Under the pieces are notes generated by a model. The model made no database searches and had not been told where the DNA came from. It was given only the letters and a program-made list of their open reading frames with translations. A DNA stretch of 36,072 nt from an uncultured Thermoleophilia bacterium (lineage in GTDB: Bacteria; Actinomycetota; Thermoleophilia; Miltoncostaeales; Miltoncostaeaceae). Location: assembly GCA_947258365.1 (NCBI GenBank), contig CAMYIK010000004.1:1-36072 (forward strand), in the 5' to 3' direction. The translations under genes and the position numbers were made by a program. The first letter of the stretch is position 1. Each line of letters starts with the position of its first letter. Positions 5,531 to 13,444 of this stretch are shown here, piece after piece.

Positions 5531-7006
5531 TCAGCGCCCGGCCAGCGCCAGGCGGTTCCGGCCGGCGTTCTTCGCGTTGTACATCGCTGCGTCGCTTTGG
5601 CGGATGAGGTCCTCCATGTCGGTCACGTCGACCGACGGGAACGAGGCGGCGCCGAGGCTGATGGTGACTCGGATCTCCGCCGCGCCTTCGGCGACTGCGA
5701 TCGACTCGACCACCCGCCGGATCCGTTCGCCGAGATTGCGGACGTCGTCCTCGCCGGCCCCCGGGAGCACCGCGAGGAACTCCTCGCCACCGTATCGCAT
5801 GAGGGTGTCGCCCTCGCGCAGCACGCCCTTGACGCCGTCGGCAACGGCCTTCAGCACACGGTCGCCGGCATCGTGGCCGTATGTGTCGTTGACGGCCTTG
5901 AAGTGATCGATGTCGAATAGCACCACGCCTAGCGGCTCCTGCGATCGAATCGTTCGGCTGAACTCCTGGCTGAGACGCTCGAGACCGAAGCGTCGATTGT
6001 AGAGGCCGGTGAGCGGGTCGATCGCCGCCACTTGTTGGAGACGCTCGTGCGCCAAGGCGTTGTTCAACGCAACGGCGAAGTTCGGGAGCAGCTGCTCGAT
6101 CAGCTGTTGCGCCTCGTCGGTTGTCGGCTCGGTCGAGGCGAACAGCACGACGCCGACCGGTACAAGTCGGATGTGGAGCGGGTACGCCACGACCGAGCGC
6201 GGCCTGAACGCGACGAATCCACCGTCGAGGCGGACATCGTCGGGAAGATCGATGGCGACCGTGTCCAGGGTGCGATACGACTGCTCCACCAGTGCAGTGC
6301 CGGCTAGCTCAGAGGGGTGGTCGACGCCGTTCGAGGCCAGCGTCACCAGCTCACCGTCGCGCACGATGCAGAGTGCAGACGCCGTATACCCGCCCGCGGC
6401 GGCGAGATCGGCAAGAGCCGCCTCAACGAGCGGCGAGATCTCGATGTGCGAGGAGAGCGTTGTCGCGAAGCGACGCGCCGAACCCGTCTGGCGATGCGAC
6501 GCGGCGAGCGCTTCGACCAGTCGGTTGAACGAGGTCGCTGCGGCCCCGATCTCGTCCTCGGAATCGACCGGAATCGAACACCGCTCCGGCGTGCACTCGT
6601 CGGCATTCTCGATGAGGCTGGCGCGGCGAAGCGTTAACTCGACGTTCGACATCTTCGCACGCATGAACTGCAACCGCGATCTTACGACCGCCCGCGAGAG
6701 AAACTGGTTGGTCACACCGACCATGAGGCCCGCGCCGATGGTCGCCACGAAGAAGCGGGGGGTCAACACGTATTCGGCCGGGACGCCGAGCGCCACGACG
6801 AAGAACGGGAACGCGACGCCCATCGCGAGGCCGAGTCCCGACATCCAGATCGCCAGGTCGGTGAATACTCGCTTCGTCAGCCGGGGGAGCGGGTGGCGGA
6901 ACTCGGTCGGCGAGACCGACGGATCTTCTGGACCCGCCCTGCGAGGGGCCGGTCGAGCGGCGTTGTCGGACATAGCAATCTCATCGGCGCGTGGAGGGTC
7001 CGTCAT
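5531..7006 (-). CDS. Membrane-anchored GAF-GGDEF diguanylate cyclase
   Basis: The 491-residue protein has two transmembrane helices (about 51-75 and 85-105), a HAMP-like linker (105-170), a GAF-like domain (185-320) and a C-terminal GGDEF domain (325-488). The domain is complete: DPLTGLYNRR, the FDIDHFKAVND metal site, and GGEEF at 406-410. RxxD at 397-400 forms an intact inhibitory I-site five residues before GGEEF, so it should make c-di-GMP and be inhibited by it. The second start (Met12, 6973) is possible, as neither site has a strong ribosome signal. The gene stands alone, 395 bases beyond the HDOD-LuxR stop. Confidence 0.93.
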   Translation of the reverse strand: MTDPPRADEIAMSDNAARPAPRRAGPEDPSVSPTEFRHPLPRLTKRVFTDLAIWMSGLGLAMGVAFPFFVVALGVPAEYVLTPRFFVATIGAGLMVGVTNQFLSRAVVRSRLQFMRAKMSNVELTLRRASLIENADECTPERCSIPVDSEDEIGAAATSFNRLVEALAASHRQTGSARRFATTLSSHIEISPLVEAALADLAAAGGYTASALCIVRDGELVTLASNGVDHPSELAGTALVEQSYRTLDTVAIDLPDDVRLDGGFVAFRPRSVVAYPLHIRLVPVGVVLFASTEPTTDEAQQLIEQLLPNFAVALNNALAHERLQQVAAIDPLTGLYNRRFGLERLSQEFSRTIRSQEPLGVVLFDIDHFKAVNDTYGHDAGDRVLKAVADGVKGVLREGDTLMRYGGEEFLAVLPGAGEDDVRNLGERIRRVVESIAVAEGAAEIRVTISLGAASFPSVDVTDMEDLIRQSDAAMYNAKNAGRNRLALAGR

Positions 7007-7012
7007 GAGTGA

Positions 7013-7264
7013 ATGAGTGGGCCGCGCCGTCGCTCGACAGTTCAGGACTCATGGTTGTATCGGGAGCAGGACGCGGCAGGGCTCCCACGCACGGGATGGC
7101 ACGCGCTCAGGCGCTCGGCGCTGCTGCTGCCCGAGGTAACGGCGCTCTCGCCGATTGACCAACGCGACTTCGCGCGGCACCGGAACGTCGACGAGACCTT
7201 CAACGCCTACCAGCGCCAAGCCCCGGAGGCGACGGCGCGACGGCTGGTCGAGGCGCTGGGGTAG
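7013..7264 (+). pseudogene. C-terminal remnant of a tyrosine recombinase (integrase)
   Basis: This 83-residue frame reads like the last part of a phage-type integrase: AGLPRTGWHALRRS, a 21-residue helical gap, RHRNVDETFNAYQRQ, then a helical tail. Catalytic spacing fits box II of the family: H30 and R33 (3 apart), R33 to H56 (23 apart), H56 to the nucleophile-like Y66 (10 apart). XerD has H244, R247, H270 and Y279. The usual glycine before the second histidine is an arginine. A stop codon lies directly before the ATG, and the N-terminal domain and the first catalytic arginine and lysine are absent, so it cannot be active. Confidence 0.6.
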
Positions 7265-7401: not shown

Positions 7402-8445
7402 TTAGACCCAGTTGTTCTCGCGGGCGACCAGCAGGGCCTGAGCCTGTCCGCTGACCTTGAGCTTTCGGTAGACGTGGTGCAGGTGGTTGTGGATCGTCGA
7501 TGGCGAGCAGCCGAGGCGATGGGCGACCTGCTTGGCCGTCTCACCTTCGGCGAGCAGCCGCAGTACCTGAACTTCACGATCAGTGAGTCCGGGCGGGCGA
7601 CGAGGTCCCTCCCCGGGACCGCCGCCGACGATGAGCTGCTCGAAGGCGCTCACCGGCAAGCCGCTTGCCTCTACCCCACTTCGGGCGACGCGCATGTTGT
7701 CGCCGTCACCGGAGGACGCCCGCACGAGGAGGTTGCCGAGCCAGACGCTGCGCTCGACGACGCCCTCAGGCGGAGAGGGAGCGTGGTGGCTCGAGATCGC
7801 CTTTACGACCTGATCGGGAAAGCCCCAACGCTCGCCGAGCCACGCACCGACGCGAGCGTGATCGACACCGAATACCTCGCGCTCGCCGCCGTTCGCGCGC
7901 TCGAGCTGAGTCGGGTCGACAGCGTCGGCGATGGATGCCAGGACGATCTTGCCGAAGTCATGCAGCGCGCCACCAAGCGAGGCGACATCCGCGAGTGCCC
8001 CTGCGCCGAGGGAGCGCGCGGCGCGCTCACTCATGTCGGCGACGTCGCCTGCGTGGCGAAGGAAACTCGCCTTGGTGGTGTTATAGAAGCCCATGGACGT
8101 GCCGGTGAGACGATACGTCTTGCGGCTGGTCAGCAGGGTTGCGATACCGCGATGGCCTGCGCGATCGATGGCGTCCTCGATCGAGCTGATCGCACCGCCG
8201 CGCTCACTGGCCCCAAGACGGAGCACGAGCGCGGTGATCTCCGGACTGCGCGCAACGCGAGCCGCAAGGCTGCGGCTGGTTACCGTCGAGCTCTCGAGGA
8301 CCTCCAGGATTCCGCTCGCGACGACCGCCGGCACGGCCAGCGACTCGGCGTGGTCGAGAATGGCCTGCGCCCGAGGAACCCGTGCGGTGCCAGAGCGCCG
8401 GTTCTGTGCTGCCGTTGTGGGGGTATGACGTGCCCGGGAGCTCAT
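7402..8445 (-). CDS. HDOD domain protein fused to a LuxR-type DNA-binding domain
   Basis: The ATG at 8443-8445 overlaps the upstream stop by 4 bases (ATGA), giving 347 residues. Residues about 22-240 form an HDOD domain: a helical bundle, then H131, the HDFGKI motif (H162, D163), the GVDHARVGAWLGERWGFP block, and SHH at 219-221. A glycine-rich linker (about 273-286) leads to a LuxR/GerE helix-turn-helix (287-347): LTDREVQVLRLLAEGETAKQVA, LGCSPSTIHNHL, YRKLKVSGQAQALL. There is no receiver domain. HDOD domains act in bacterial signalling and usually sit alone or with EAL or GGDEF domains. A direct tie to a promoter-binding domain suggests a transcription factor driven by signals from the coupled HD-GYP protein. 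Confidence 0.88.
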   Translation of the reverse strand: MSSRARHTPTTAAQNRRSGTARVPRAQAILDHAESLAVPAVVASGILEVLESSTVTSRSLAARVARSPEITALVLRLGASERGGAISSIEDAIDRAGHRGIATLLTSRKTYRLTGTSMGFYNTTKASFLRHAGDVADMSERAARSLGAGALADVASLGGALHDFGKIVLASIADAVDPTQLERANGGEREVFGVDHARVGAWLGERWGFPDQVVKAISSHHAPSPPEGVVERSVWLGNLLVRASSGDGDNMRVARSGVEASGLPVSAFEQLIVGGGPGEGPRRPPGLTDREVQVLRLLAEGETAKQVAHRLGCSPSTIHNHLHHVYRKLKVSGQAQALLVARENNWV

Positions 8446-10349
8446 TGCTGCCGCTCCGGACTGTCGAGATAACCGTCGTCGGCGAGCGAACTGAGCGCAT
8501 CGACGACCTCGGTGGTGAACTGGCTGCCGGCGCACTCCTGCAGCTCCGCGATAGCGGCATCCACGGGAATCGCGTTGCGGTATGGGCGGTCGGCGGTGAG
8601 CTCGTCAAAAGCCTCCGCGACGCCGATGATCTGAGCCTCGATGGGAATGTGCTCGCCTTCCAAATTGTCCGGGTAGCCGGTTCCGTCGGCCCGCTCGTGG
8701 TGGTGGCGGATCCAGAGGCGAACGTCGTTGAAGGGTGTGCCCGCCAATAGCTGGGCACCTATGTCCGGGTGCTCGCGCACCTCGTCCTGGGCGGCGACCT
8801 CGAGCTCGTCGGGAGAGCCGAGGGTCTCCTCGCTCATGGAGATCTGCCCAATGTCGTGAAGCATTGCCGCGACGTAGACGCGCTCGGCACGGTCGCGCTC
8901 GAGGCCCATTCGGCCGGCGAGTTGCCGTGCGATTCGTGCCACGCGCATCGCGTGCCCGTTAGCGCCACGACGGCCGTCTACCGCGTCCGCGAGCATGCGG
9001 AGCGATTCGGCGATAGCGTCGTTGCGCTCGAGGTCCTCGGCGACCTCGTCTTCGAGAGACGCGGCGATCTCTCGCTCATATACGAAGGTGCGATCCGTGC
9101 CGTCGGCTCGGGCCCATCCGAGGGCCTTGGAAGCGGCTTCGCGCAGCTCCTTTGCGGAACCCGCGCGAGCGGGGAACGTGGCGGCGCCCACCGAAACTGT
9201 GGTGGCTACGCCGAAGGCGTCGGACTCCCGTGCCTTGGCGCGGAGTCGATCGGCGATCAAGACCGCGTCCATGGTTTCGACGTCAGCGAGGATTACACCG
9301 ATCTCGTCTTCGGCGATGCGGCACGGCACATCCCCGACTCGTAGGTCGGAGCCCGCGATTCGGGCGAGCTCGATCAGATCCTTGTCCAGCTGCTCGCTGG
9401 GAACGTCGAGGCCCATGACCAGGACGCTCACGGAGCGAAGGTGTCGCTCGGCTTGTGCGGTCTCCTGAGACAGACGCTCCTCGAAGTACGAGATGCCCGG
9501 CATGCCCGTCGCCGGATCGACCAGATCGCGCCGCTCGGCGTTCTCGCTGGCGCCGGTCTGAAGTCGTGGCGCGATCGATACGCCGAAGTCCGTCAGAGCG
9601 GAGGTTTCCGCGCCGCCGAAGTCTTCGATGCTCGCCGAGAGGACCATCAGTGTCGCCTCGCCGGCCTCGGCACCGAGACCGATGGCGGCAACCGCGCCGA
9701 GCCCCTGGCGGGCCAATGGACCGTCGGCGACCGCTCCGCTCCACATCTCGCCGAGGGCGAGCGGCGGAGCCGCTTGAGGCAGCAACGTGTGCAGTTCGTC
9801 GTCGCTGATCTTGTAGAGGCCGTCGTGCCACATACGTGCGGACGGCGGCTGGCCGCTGACGAGGACGCCCGCGCTGCCATGAAGCAGGCGCCGAGCCTGG
9901 GTCACGATGCGCGTTGCGACGGTTTCGAGATCTGCCGGCGGACCCACCTGAGCGATGGCTGACGCAACGCTGGTGCGCCATGCCTGCTGCTCGGCGAGTG
10001 CGTGCTCCAGCTCCGAGGCGCGTAGGCCTAGGGCAAGGCGATCGGCAAAGCTCTCGAGATCTTCGTAACCGAACTCACCGCCCCAAAGGGCGATTGAGCC
10101 GAACTCGCGATCGCCGATCCGAAGATCGACCATCCATGGGTTCTGGATCGGTCGAGCACCAGACCCGAAGCTCAGGCCGTGCTCGGTCGCTCCGCGCCAG
10201 TCAAGTTCACCGTGAGAAGCACCAGTGAGCTCGCGCAGAGAATCAAGGGTCGCCACAGCAGCTTGTGCTGGACTCCCTTGAACTGCCGCCTGGCCGGCCG
10301 TCCGAAGATGGCCAAGCACGAGCGACATATCCCGCTTCCCTGCGGACAT
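8442..10349 (-). CDS. GAF/degenerate GGDEF/HD-GYP hybrid signalling protein
   Basis: The 635-residue protein has a GAF-like N-terminal half (about 25-265), then a GGDEF fold (275-425) starting DPATGMPG. Its catalytic signature is AEDEI (346-350), and the metal-binding first motif is lost, so it should not make c-di-GMP. The HD-GYP domain (445-630) is complete: HAMRVARIA, HDIGQI (H499, D500 region), REHPDIGAQLL, and HHERADGTGYP (550-560). It should therefore hydrolyse c-di-GMP or a related dinucleotide, with the dead GGDEF as a possible nucleotide sensor. A GGAGGT (10353-10358) precedes the ATG, slightly close; Met8 is an alternative. It has no membrane segments and is coupled to the HDOD-LuxR gene. 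Confidence 0.92.
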   Translation of the reverse strand: MSAGKRDMSLVLGHLRTAGQAAVQGSPAQAAVATLDSLRELTGASHGELDWRGATEHGLSFGSGARPIQNPWMVDLRIGDREFGSIALWGGEFGYEDLESFADRLALGLRASELEHALAEQQAWRTSVASAIAQVGPPADLETVATRIVTQARRLLHGSAGVLVSGQPPSARMWHDGLYKISDDELHTLLPQAAPPLALGEMWSGAVADGPLARQGLGAVAAIGLGAEAGEATLMVLSASIEDFGGAETSALTDFGVSIAPRLQTGASENAERRDLVDPATGMPGISYFEERLSQETAQAERHLRSVSVLVMGLDVPSEQLDKDLIELARIAGSDLRVGDVPCRIAEDEIGVILADVETMDAVLIADRLRAKARESDAFGVATTVSVGAATFPARAGSAKELREAASKALGWARADGTDRTFVYEREIAASLEDEVAEDLERNDAIAESLRMLADAVDGRRGANGHAMRVARIARQLAGRMGLERDRAERVYVAAMLHDIGQISMSEETLGSPDELEVAAQDEVREHPDIGAQLLAGTPFNDVRLWIRHHHERADGTGYPDNLEGEHIPIEAQIIGVAEAFDELTADRPYRNAIPVDAAIAELQECAGSQFTTEVVDALSSLADDGYLDSPERQQ

Positions 10350-10423
10350 GTGACCTCCGTGTCGTACTGCGCTGGTCTCCTATCGGCCGTCGAGGGCAAA
10401 AGCTGAAGTCCTGCCCGCGACCT

Positions 10424-11512: not shown

Positions 11513-13444
11513 TCAGGGACGAACGGTCCTGAAGGTCCACGAACGTCGGGCGAGCAGGCCGTCCTTGTCACGAACGATGACGCGCACACGATGTTTGCCT
11601 TGAGGCAGATTGACCACGGCGCGAAGCCGACCGCGGCGCAGTCTCGATGAGACTCGGCTGCCGTTGACGAGAATCTGCGCCCGTCGGTTCACCAGGGGCG
11701 CGTCGTCGGTGACGGGAACGCTGATCGTGACCCGGCCTCGGGAGAGCTTGAATGACCCCGGCTTTGGCAGCGCCTTGGCAAGCGCGACCGTCGGGCGAGC
11801 GTTCACGACCTGGAAGCGCCACTGCCTGATCGCGGCCTGCCCTGCCGGATCGGTGACCTTCAGGATCGCGCGATGCCGGCCGACCTTGAGGCGGGTCGAG
11901 AAACGCACGATGCCCTTGCTGATCGTCGGGCGACGGCGCTGCACCTTGCCATCGACGACCAGACGGTATGCGGCGGGCGCGAGTGCGTCATCGTCGACCA
12001 CTCGGGCCGTGAGTACGACCTTGCGCCCCCGCACCACGCGGTCCGGTCGTGGCCGGACGGCGGCGATGATCGGAGAGCTATCCGGCGGACCAAATGGCGC
12101 GTAGGTCGCAAACCGATTGTCCGCCCCCGAGGCGATCTGGGCATCGGCGAGGGTGACGTCCAGAGTGCTTCCGGTCCCGATGGGCGTCGTGGTCTGAGCC
12201 TGCCATGCACCGGCATTGCCCGGTCGGTCGTCCTCATAGACGGCCAGACCAGATCGGCGAAGTCCGGAGAGCTCACCGCCGCCGAGGCGATAGCGCAGGG
12301 TCAGCGCACTCGCCGCTCCCGCCCCAGTGTCCTTCACACGAACGAATCGACCCGTCGAGCGCAGGGTGGCGGGCACCGCCGTGAGCCCGGCCCGTTGGGC
12401 AGCGGTCGCGGAGGACACGACCACGCCTACCGGGTCACCAGGAAGGTCCACCGGCGTGTCGAGGAACGTCAATCCCGTGAATTGCCCACCCGTACGTGCG
12501 TGGGGAGAAAAGCGAATGTCGCCGCGCCGATTGGTTCCGTTGAAGCGCGTGTCTGAAATCCGGAAGGCGCCGCCTCGCCCCACCGTTACACCGAAGCCGC
12601 GATTGCCGGCGACCTGTGAGCCGATGAGGGCATGGCCCGTGCCGCGCGCAACGGCGAGACCGGAGCCGCGGTTCCGCGTCAGAACGCTGGAGCTGACCGT
12701 CGTGCCGAGAGACGTCTCGTGGTCGTTCTCAATGCCGTGTCCGGCGTTACCTTCCGAGGAGAGACCGAACACGCTGAGACGATCGACGTCGCTCACCACG
12801 TCCAGGCCGTCATCACCGTTGCGCAGCACCGCGCCGCCCTCGACGCGATACGGACCGGTTCCCGCCAAACGGTTCAGCCGAATTCCGTCACCCTTGGCAC
12901 CGGTGACCAGTGCCCGGTTGACCAGGACGCCACGAACTCGGTCGACGCTGATTCCCGCTCCACCGGCGCCCGTAACGACGACACGTCGCAGTTCGATGTT
13001 GCCCGCGTTTGCACGTGGGCCCACCTGAATTCCCACGCCGCTCGGGCGCAGACAGCGAAGCCCCTGAACCAGAACGCCGCCCCGCAATACGTCAATACAG
13101 CCGCCGCTGGTGTTGTTGGTGCCACCCGTGCCGGAGATCGTTACCGTCGCTCCACGGGCAGGACGGATGGTGAGGTTGGGCTCGAGCACCGAAAAGTCGC
13201 CGTAGCTGCCGGAGCCGATCATGATCGACCAGCGCTTGACGTCGCTGCGTCGCCGCAGTGAGCCGGTACGAGCTCGCCTCTCGGCGACCTGAATCGCGTC
13301 AGGCCCCTTGATCACCGCGCCGATGCGTTGGTTCTGGGCGTTGCGGAGCTCTACTTCGCCAGCGCTGGGCGCGGCGATTGCTGGAGTTGCCATAGCCCCG
13401 AGCACAGCAGCGCCGAGGGCCAGAGGGAGGAGGCGGGCCGTCAT
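11513..13444 (-). CDS. Secreted right-handed beta-helix protein with Ig-like C-terminal domains
   Basis: The 643-residue protein has a signal peptide (1-24, ending TPAIA-A). Residues about 90-320 are repeated short rungs of the NosD/pectate-lyase-like beta-helix type, such as GVLVQGL, IELRRVVVTGAGGAGI and GVLVNRALVTGAKGDGI, with glycine and asparagine turns. Residues 320-450 form another beta-rich region. The end (about 455-643) has two Ig-like repeats (RVVRGRKVVLTARVVDDDA, FKLSRGRVTISVPVTDDA) with RRSWTFR closings. It is probably a cell-surface or secreted carbohydrate-binding or structural protein; no catalytic residues are evident. GGAGG lies only one base before the ATG, so the exact start is somewhat unsure. 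Confidence 0.82.
   Translation of the reverse strand: MTARLLPLALGAAVLGAMATPAIAAPSAGEVELRNAQNQRIGAVIKGPDAIQVAERRARTGSLRRRSDVKRWSIMIGSGSYGDFSVLEPNLTIRPARGATVTISGTGGTNNTSGGCIDVLRGGVLVQGLRCLRPSGVGIQVGPRANAGNIELRRVVVTGAGGAGISVDRVRGVLVNRALVTGAKGDGIRLNRLAGTGPYRVEGGAVLRNGDDGLDVVSDVDRLSVFGLSSEGNAGHGIENDHETSLGTTVSSSVLTRNRGSGLAVARGTGHALIGSQVAGNRGFGVTVGRGGAFRISDTRFNGTNRRGDIRFSPHARTGGQFTGLTFLDTPVDLPGDPVGVVVSSATAAQRAGLTAVPATLRSTGRFVRVKDTGAGAASALTLRYRLGGGELSGLRRSGLAVYEDDRPGNAGAWQAQTTTPIGTGSTLDVTLADAQIASGADNRFATYAPFGPPDSSPIIAAVRPRPDRVVRGRKVVLTARVVDDDALAPAAYRLVVDGKVQRRRPTISKGIVRFSTRLKVGRHRAILKVTDPAGQAAIRQWRFQVVNARPTVALAKALPKPGSFKLSRGRVTISVPVTDDAPLVNRRAQILVNGSRVSSRLRRGRLRAVVNLPQGKHRVRVIVRDKDGLLARRSWTFRTVRP

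What the first reader, a model, noticed from the sequence alone, without database searches (positions are those of the whole stretch)
7402..10349. HDOD-LuxR transcription factor coupled to a GGDEF-dead HD-GYP protein
An HD-GYP hydrolase whose GGDEF is degenerate (AEDEI) overlaps by 4 bases an HDOD protein that carries its own LuxR helix-turn-helix and keeps its HD motif. A complete GGDEF cyclase with an I-site lies next to them. Synthesis, breakdown and a DNA-binding output would thus lie in one cluster. HDOD fused to LuxR is, as far as I know, not a described system; HDOD domains are usually alone or with EAL/GGDEF.
Basis: partly seen in the sequence, partly recalled or inferred. Interest (0 to 1): 0.55.

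Follow-up and report, generated by a model that had tools for sequence, protein, structure and literature searches.

The report
HDOD-LuxR regulator under WhiG-type promoter
A DNA-binding protein that joins a nucleotide-enzyme-like HDOD domain to a LuxR-type DNA-binding tail is widespread in one bacterial class, and its gene usually carries a promoter of the kind that the second messenger c-di-GMP can switch, which ties the family to that signal before any experiment has been done on it.

Summary
In detail: 7402-8445(-) encodes HDOD fused to a LuxR/GerE helix-turn-helix, overlapping by 4 bases a GGDEF/HD-GYP protein with a dead cyclase site. (1) The fusion is not rare: at least 141 of 399 genomes sampled from the class Thermoleophilia carry it; none was seen outside the class. 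(2) The HD-GYP pairing is conserved only in the window's family, in 11 of 12 fusion-bearing genomes. (3) The complete cyclase is not part of a conserved cluster. (4) New: the operon and most class-wide HDOD-LuxR genes are preceded by a sigma-28/WhiG-type promoter, CTNNA-N16-GCCGATA; in 40 freshly fetched loci it lay upstream in 23, never elsewhere in 136,376 bases. In this class WhiG is the sigma factor held by c-di-GMP-loaded RsiG (PMC8325347). (5) The dead GGDEF keeps the RxxD I-site motif in 12 of 12. Best reading: a one-component regulator expressed from the c-di-GMP/WhiG switch and, in this family, together with a phosphodiesterase. That HDOD binds c-di-GMP is inference. New variant of a known kind.

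The parts
7402..8445 (-). HDOD-LuxR regulator, 347 aa (the longer GTG start at 8535 is not preferred)
   Evidence: relatives begin near the same ATG
7777..8328 (-). HDOD domain; HD-type ligands H131, H162-D163, H196, H220-H221 kept; seventh position N238 (D in 8 of 11 family members and 25 of 25 class members)
7423..7587 (-). LuxR/GerE helix-turn-helix of a distinct subfamily
8442..10349 (-). HD-GYP protein, 635 aa: two GAF-like alpha/beta domains (model only), dead GGDEF, HD-GYP
9093..9521 (-). degenerate GGDEF domain (AEDEI)
9330..9341 (-). RxxD (RVGD) at the I-site position; R337 and D340 invariant in 12 of 12
8517..8969 (-). HD-GYP domain with H466, H498-D499, H527, H550-H551, D582 and GYP
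10381..10408 (-). sigma-28/WhiG-type promoter-like site CTTCA-N16-GCCGATA in the gap between ccmH and the HD-GYP gene
5531..7006 (-). complete GGDEF (GGEEF) protein with RxxD I-site; neighbour, not part of the conserved unit

Best explanation
HDOD-LuxR is a one-component transcription factor of the class Thermoleophilia, made when the flagellar-type sigma factor WhiG is free. Shown by sequence: its gene, or in Miltoncostaeaceae the HD-GYP/HDOD-LuxR operon, carries a sigma-28/WhiG-type promoter in most class genomes tested and in part of the family. Inferred: because c-di-GMP-loaded RsiG restrains WhiG, low c-di-GMP releases WhiG, the operon is transcribed, the HD-GYP enzyme lowers c-di-GMP further (a latch by positive feedback), and the HDOD domain, by binding a nucleotide such as c-di-GMP or its breakdown product, sets the dimer state of the LuxR tail and so the target genes. 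The dead GGDEF with its kept RxxD would let c-di-GMP itself tune the phosphodiesterase. Target genes are unknown.
For: Fusion conserved: at least 141 of 399 class genomes. Promoter: strict CTNNA-N16-GCCGATA in 23 of 40 fresh loci, 0 elsewhere in 136,376 bases, shuffles mean 0.01 and at most 1; over all 65 class loci 52 have at most 1 mismatch against 1 of 325 shuffled, and the CT[AC]AA form has the 16-base spacer in 41 regions against at most 3 at any other spacing from 8 to 24. Window operon: exact site, also exact in G001, G025 and G015 with different spacers. FliA/WhiG gene over its cut-off in 62 of 80 genomes; none of the 15 g9 genomes, which lack the fusion, has it. RsiG-(c-di-GMP)-WhiG is shown for Rubrobacter and Conexibacter proteins, with WhiG promoters before 5 DGC/PDE genes in R. 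radiotolerans (PMC8325347: abstract, passages, one section). Another HDOD protein, SadB, binds c-di-GMP (PMC6543031, passages) and is a structural match of the model. HD-GYP ligands kept, RxxD invariant. The same HTH on a receiver domain in family f2 also has the promoter in 3 of 4 loci.
Against: No transcription start, binding or enzyme data. The window's -35 box (CTTCA) departs from TAAA; by the two-mismatch rule of PMC8325347 the window site would have 3. Nine of 18 family upstream regions have three or more mismatches, and 13 of 65 class ones have two or more. WhiG was not found over the cut-off in the window's own assembly (87% complete), only in the sister species; RsiG was not found near whiG in 16 loci and was not sought elsewhere. 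All 68 tested fusion-bearing genomes have GGDEF domains, but so do 34 of 36 without the fusion, so that test does not discriminate. Five family genomes keep the HD-GYP gene with the fusion missing, and one keeps the fusion without HD-GYP. In SadB a YbaK-like domain could be the binder instead of HDOD.
Confidence: 0.5

Rival explanations
1. The HDOD domain senses something other than c-di-GMP (a metal, a redox state or another nucleotide). The HD-GYP gene is only a co-regulated neighbour in one family, and both are in the WhiG regulon for separate reasons.
For: In 22 of 25 class-type loci no GGDEF or HD-GYP gene lies within about 6 kb; in the window's family five genomes lack the fusion but keep HD-GYP; HDOD is said to be metal-regulated in the V. 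cholerae ZpdA paper (PMC12607878, passages); in the class the gene adjoins Rrf2 and cysK/cysE.
Against: 52 of 65 class loci keep a WhiG-type promoter, which puts the gene downstream of c-di-GMP anyway, and SadB gives a precedent for c-di-GMP binding.
Confidence: 0.35
2. Trigger-phosphodiesterase model: the HD-GYP protein binds HDOD-LuxR directly and releases it when it degrades c-di-GMP, in the manner described for PdeR and its transcription-factor partner in E. coli.
For: Overlapping genes (4 bases), conserved order in 11 of 12 family genomes, two N-terminal GAF-like folds and a dead GGDEF as possible docking surfaces; concept in PMC5052742 (abstract and one section).
Against: Most HDOD-LuxR genes of the class have no such partner gene nearby; each gene is found without the other within the family.
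Confidence: 0.2
3. HDOD-LuxR is itself an enzyme: its HD ligands are intact, so it hydrolyses a nucleotide and acts like PdeL (LuxR-type HTH plus EAL), being phosphodiesterase and transcription factor in one chain.
For: H, HD, H, HH kept in 36 of 37 HDOD-LuxR proteins, with D at the seventh ligand position in 33 of 37.
Against: The window protein has N at the seventh ligand; 36 of 49 other HDOD proteins, a set chosen partly by its HD motif, keep the same six residues although HDOD is described as lacking catalytic activity (PMC6543031, passages), so retention is not evidence of catalysis.
Confidence: 0.1

Closest known systems
PdeL (E. coli), LuxR-type HTH fused to an EAL phosphodiesterase domain (PMC5052742, section read)
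   Same: A LuxR-type HTH and a c-di-GMP-pathway-related domain in one chain; presumed second-messenger-gated transcription factor
   Different: PdeL has the HTH at the N-terminus and an active EAL; here the HTH is C-terminal on an HDOD domain of unknown ligand
SadB (Pseudomonas), YbaK-HDOD
   Same: HDOD domain; sequence hit (9qzk) and Foldseek hit of the model; SadB binds c-di-GMP
   Different: SadB carries a YbaK-like domain in place of a DNA-binding one
[quoted passage not shown]
   Same: Promoter type and class; places HDOD-LuxR downstream of a c-di-GMP-gated sigma factor
   Different: HDOD and LuxR do not occur in that paper's main text; targets named there are type IV pili and DGC/PDE genes
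NarL/FixJ-type and VpsT-type response regulators
   Same: GerE/LuxR HTH
   Different: Receiver-type N-terminus; in family f2 of this class the same HTH subfamily is indeed on a receiver domain
Degenerate GGDEF receptors of the PelD/PopA kind (recalled, not from a call)
   Same: Dead GGDEF with kept RxxD I-site
   Different: Here followed by an intact HD-GYP domain

Membership tests
HDOD (PF08668) | Score over the curated cut-off | tested here: met
   90.9 bits against 22.9, aa 40-223
LuxR/GerE HTH (PF00196) | Score over the curated cut-off | tested here: met
   64.5 bits against 23.5, aa 287-341
Quorum-sensing LuxR | Autoinducer-binding domain | tested here: not met
   No such Pfam domain among the 23 matches of P0001
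Two-component response regulator | Receiver domain | tested here: not met
   No Response_reg match in P0001
HD-GYP phosphodiesterase (P0002) | HD, downstream H, HH and D ligands and a GYP motif | tested here: met
   H466, H498, D499, H550, D582 invariant in 12 of 12, H527 and Y559 nearly so; the second H of HH varies in 3
HD-GYP phosphodiesterase (P0002) | Hydrolysis of c-di-GMP or cGAMP | not testable with these tools
   Nearest solved sequence is a 3'3'-cGAMP phosphodiesterase (5z7c), then 4mcw and 4r8z
Active diguanylate cyclase (P0002) | GG(D/E)EF and first metal-binding Asp | tested here: not met
   No member of 12 has both glycines; the first Asp, placed by eye, is absent in 12 of 12
c-di-GMP I-site | RxxD five residues before the GGDEF position | tested here: met
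   12 of 12; binding itself not tested
Active diguanylate cyclase (P0003) | GG(D/E)EF | tested here: met
   GGEEF, 163.7 bits; activity not tested
WhiG/sigma-28 regulon | -35 TAAA-like and GCCGATA-like -10 at fixed spacing upstream of the gene | tested here: met
   Class: 23 of 40 fresh loci strict. Window: CTTCA-N16-GCCGATA, weaker -35
WhiG/sigma-28 regulon | whiG gene in the same genome | tested here: inconclusive
   Not over cut-off in the incomplete window assembly; present in sister G001
[quoted passage not shown]
   Absent from 16 whiG neighbourhoods; rest of the genomes not searched; reported for 3 Thermoleophilia in PMC8325347

The most novel reading that the evidence does not exclude
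HDOD-LuxR is the dedicated output regulator of the ancestral actinobacterial c-di-GMP/WhiG switch in Thermoleophilia, gated twice by the same messenger: its synthesis through RsiG-WhiG and its DNA binding through the HDOD domain. The DNA-binding module and its WhiG-type promoter have stayed together through at least three genomic locations and two different sensor domains (HDOD and receiver).
Probability: 0.3. Interest if true: 0.75.

Novelty: new variant of a known kind. Interest (0 to 1): 0.6.

Why it matters
HDOD domains are common but their mechanistic role is described as not established (PMC6543031, passages). Here one is fused to a DNA-binding tail, kept across a class, and placed under a promoter type that a c-di-GMP-controlled sigma factor reads. 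That makes the question 'what does HDOD sense?' directly testable with a DNA-binding read-out, and gives the WhiG switch of early-branching actinobacteria a named candidate downstream regulator.

Tried and rejected
A single cluster of synthesis, breakdown and output: rejected as a conserved unit. P0003 has no full-length match in the 22 other family genomes (best matches cover the GGDEF only; one, in G011, covers residues 41-317 at a contig end, so a distant cut-off relative there is not excluded), and a 50% full-length match in G043 of another family.

A palindromic binding site for the LuxR tail: dyads of half-site 4-6 with gaps 0-12 upstream of 25 class genes and 10 family genes did not exceed shuffles clearly. 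The same call turned up GCCGATA by word counts.

One origin of the fusion: the HDOD tree of 86 rows places class-type and family-type apart, but holding them together is not rejected (p-AU 0.382 on 49 rows; 37 rows dropped as long or redundant). The HTH tree (64 columns) is unresolved (the G010 row, with a gap in its HTH, was left out). So one or two fusions: undecided.

c-di-GMP dependence from co-occurrence: 68 of 68 with and 34 of 36 without the fusion have GGDEF; not informative.

A recombinase remnant between HDOD-LuxR and P0003 was suspected by eye; Pfam and a plasmid tblastn found nothing. Dropped.

G005 as natural experiment: its only GGDEF match is weak (2.8e-17) and its HDOD part is gone while the HTH remains. 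One event in a 93% complete assembly; suggestive only. I read that single match as the degenerate GGDEF, but one search does not print its place.

Regulon of the promoter in G000: 13 strict matches against 2 for the reversed pattern. Several lie inside genes. Ten downstream genes, chosen by me from G000, G012 and G025, were mixed (glycosyltransferase, DUF1800, LuxR HTH, response regulators, a housekeeping-type sigma factor, four without a clear Pfam match). No clear theme.
Full report
OBSERVATION. The coordinates are right. On the minus strand, 7402-8445 encodes 347 aa with HDOD (9.9e-26) and a C-terminal GerE/LuxR HTH (6.6e-18); 8442-10349 encodes 635 aa with HD-GYP (1.7e-32) and a weak GGDEF (4.5e-11); the genes overlap by ATGA. 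The complete GGDEF protein at 5531-7006 (3.8e-48, GGEEF, REGD) follows after 395 bp. The window is contig 4 of an 87% complete assembly of 337 contigs. A relative of the same family, G003 (same contig as L060), is deposited as Miltoncostaeaceae, and the sister species G001 (L056) as a Thermoleophilia bacterium.

THE PAIR. Of 37 family genomes (G000-G036), 12 have HDOD-LuxR (one, G016, as two frames). In 11 of the 12 the HD-GYP gene is immediately upstream on the same strand; G010 has HDOD-LuxR alone. The order trp genes - dsbE-like - ccmH - HD-GYP - HDOD-LuxR - DUF72 recurs, with extra genes in some. Five genomes (G002, G006, G013, G020, G023) keep HD-GYP with DUF72 next to it and no HDOD-LuxR between; G005 keeps HD-GYP and only a short HTH frame. 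So the two are linked but separable.

THE HD-GYP PROTEIN. In 12 aligned members the HD-GYP ligands H466, H498-D499, H550 and D582 are invariant. In the GGDEF none has both glycines and none has the first metal-binding Asp (placed by eye), while the RxxD of the I-site (R337, D340) is invariant. A degenerate GGDEF alone does not prove inactivity (an AGDEF cyclase is active: PMC3974145, title in search listing), but here several positions are lost. The model (mean pLDDT 76.9, pTM 0.37, 8 sequences) shows two alpha/beta folds before the GGDEF that look like GAF to me; Pfam does not call them; the best structural match is a phytochrome-type cyclase.

THE HDOD-LuxR PROTEIN. H131, H162-D163, H196, H220, H221 are all kept in 36 of 37 HDOD-LuxR proteins (10 of 11 family, 25 of 25 class, 1 of 1 second copy in G025); the seventh ligand is D in 33 of 37 and N in the window. 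The comparison set of 49 other HDOD proteins has the six in 36, but it was chosen in part by an HD pattern and by similarity, so the two figures cannot be compared as rates. The model (pLDDT 73.9, pTM 0.57, 9 sequences) matches HDOD structures 3m1t, MmoQ and SadB (6.8e-06 to 1.9e-05) and its HTH matches DegU/VraR-type tails.

DISTRIBUTION. With the family profile, 163 of 399 genomes drawn from the class match at 1e-25 or better; among the matches printed (the list is cut) 141 genomes have one that reaches the HTH end, at least four of them starting inside the HDOD. With a wider profile, 43 of 396 genomes drawn from the phylum match; the 15 matches that reach the HTH end are all in genomes of this class; in other classes matches stop by position 275. 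In 249 genomes of the phylum of Rhodoferax 57 match and none passes position 279. In these wide scans only 5 to 8 candidates per genome were scored, so misses are possible. A genome-contig scan with two peptide patterns gave 40 loci; the 9 high-identity ones are titled Thermoleophilia, Miltoncostaeaceae or less specific actinobacterial MAGs.

SECOND CONTEXT. Outside the window's family the gene lies between gltX (dnaE further upstream) and an Rrf2 regulator, cysK and cysE: in 25 of 25 loci a member of the gltX cluster lies upstream and one of the Rrf2 cluster downstream (clusters were named from representatives in two loci). A GGDEF or HD-GYP gene was found within the fetched stretch in 3 of 25 (a fourth hit was HDOD-LuxR itself).

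PROMOTER. Word counts in upstream regions showed GCCGATA. The discovery set (25 loci) has CTNNA-N16-GCCGATA upstream in 10, against 3 matches elsewhere in 317,655 bases on both strands. A fresh set of 40 loci, not used to define the pattern, has it in 23, none elsewhere in 136,376 bases, shuffles mean 0.01, at most 1. Over all 65: 34 with no mismatch and 18 with one to CTNAA-N15/16-GCCGATA, against 1 of 325 shuffled; with CT[AC]AA and GCCGAT the spacer is 16 in 41 regions and at most 3 for any other length from 8 to 24. Thirteen of 65 have two or more mismatches. In the family, 4 of 18 HD-GYP or HDOD-LuxR upstream regions are exact (window, G001, G025, G015), 3 have one mismatch, 2 have two, 9 have three or more; shuffled sequences reach one mismatch or better in 2 of 720. 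The window site is at 10381-10408, inside the gap between ccmH and the HD-GYP gene. The consensus TAAA / GCCGATAA is that of flagellar-type sigma factors including WhiG (PMC8325347, section read). Rows of closely related genomes are not independent, but spacers differ while boxes do not.

WHY c-di-GMP. PMC8325347 (abstract, passages and one section read) reports that RsiG armed with c-di-GMP restrains WhiG, that single-motif RsiG occurs in three Thermoleophilia including Conexibacter, and that in R. radiotolerans 12 WhiG promoters have mapped starts, 5 of them before DGC/PDE genes. FliA/WhiG is over its curated cut-off in 62 of 80 genomes tested; the 18 without are all 15 genomes of genus g9 (which lack HDOD-LuxR), G013, G023 and the window's own assembly, while the sister G001 has it. 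No RsiG motif lies near whiG in 16 loci.

SAME TAIL, OTHER SENSOR. In family f2 a receiver-domain protein carries the same HTH subfamily (106-113 bits against at most 60.5 for other LuxR tails) and CTAAN-N16-GCCGAT upstream in 3 of 4 loci, the only matches in 59,814 bases. The tail and its promoter thus travel with different sensors.

LITERATURE. In the held library HDOD with LuxR gives 2 papers, neither on a fusion in the passages read; HDOD with helix-turn-helix 4; other searches listed none by title or abstract. Subscription journals and preprints are not held. SadB (HDOD) binds c-di-GMP (PMC6543031, passages). PdeL joins a LuxR-type HTH to an EAL domain (PMC5052742, abstract and one section).

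VERDICT. Real, conserved, apparently undescribed, and tied to c-di-GMP by promoter rather than by a three-gene cluster. The mechanism of ligand sensing remains inference.

Noticed in passing
L024, L025, L026, L027: Receiver-LuxR response regulators of family f2 carry the HDOD-LuxR type of HTH and, in 3 of 4 loci, the same sigma-28/WhiG-type promoter.
   Followed up: partly
L052 7525-7743: G005 keeps the HD-GYP gene but only a short HTH frame of HDOD-LuxR; the genome shows a single weak GGDEF match, so c-di-GMP synthesis may be lost there.
   Followed up: partly
window 7013-7264: Plus-strand stretch between HDOD-LuxR and the GGDEF gene that looked like a recombinase C-terminus by eye; Pfam and a plasmid search found nothing.
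   Followed up: yes
window 11513-13444: 643-aa protein with a right-handed beta-helix (4.2e-09) between trpC and the dsbE-like gene, with relatives in the same place in G001 and G010 and beside dsbE in G011.
   Followed up: no
L055 5978-7057: A second, divergent HDOD-LuxR-like protein (29%) in G025 in another location.
   Followed up: no
L047 5486-6109 and cluster members in L049, L096, L097, L102, L110: A gene of one cluster (a receiver-LuxR response regulator in L047) lies on the opposite strand right after class-type HDOD-LuxR in 6 of 25 loci.
   Followed up: no
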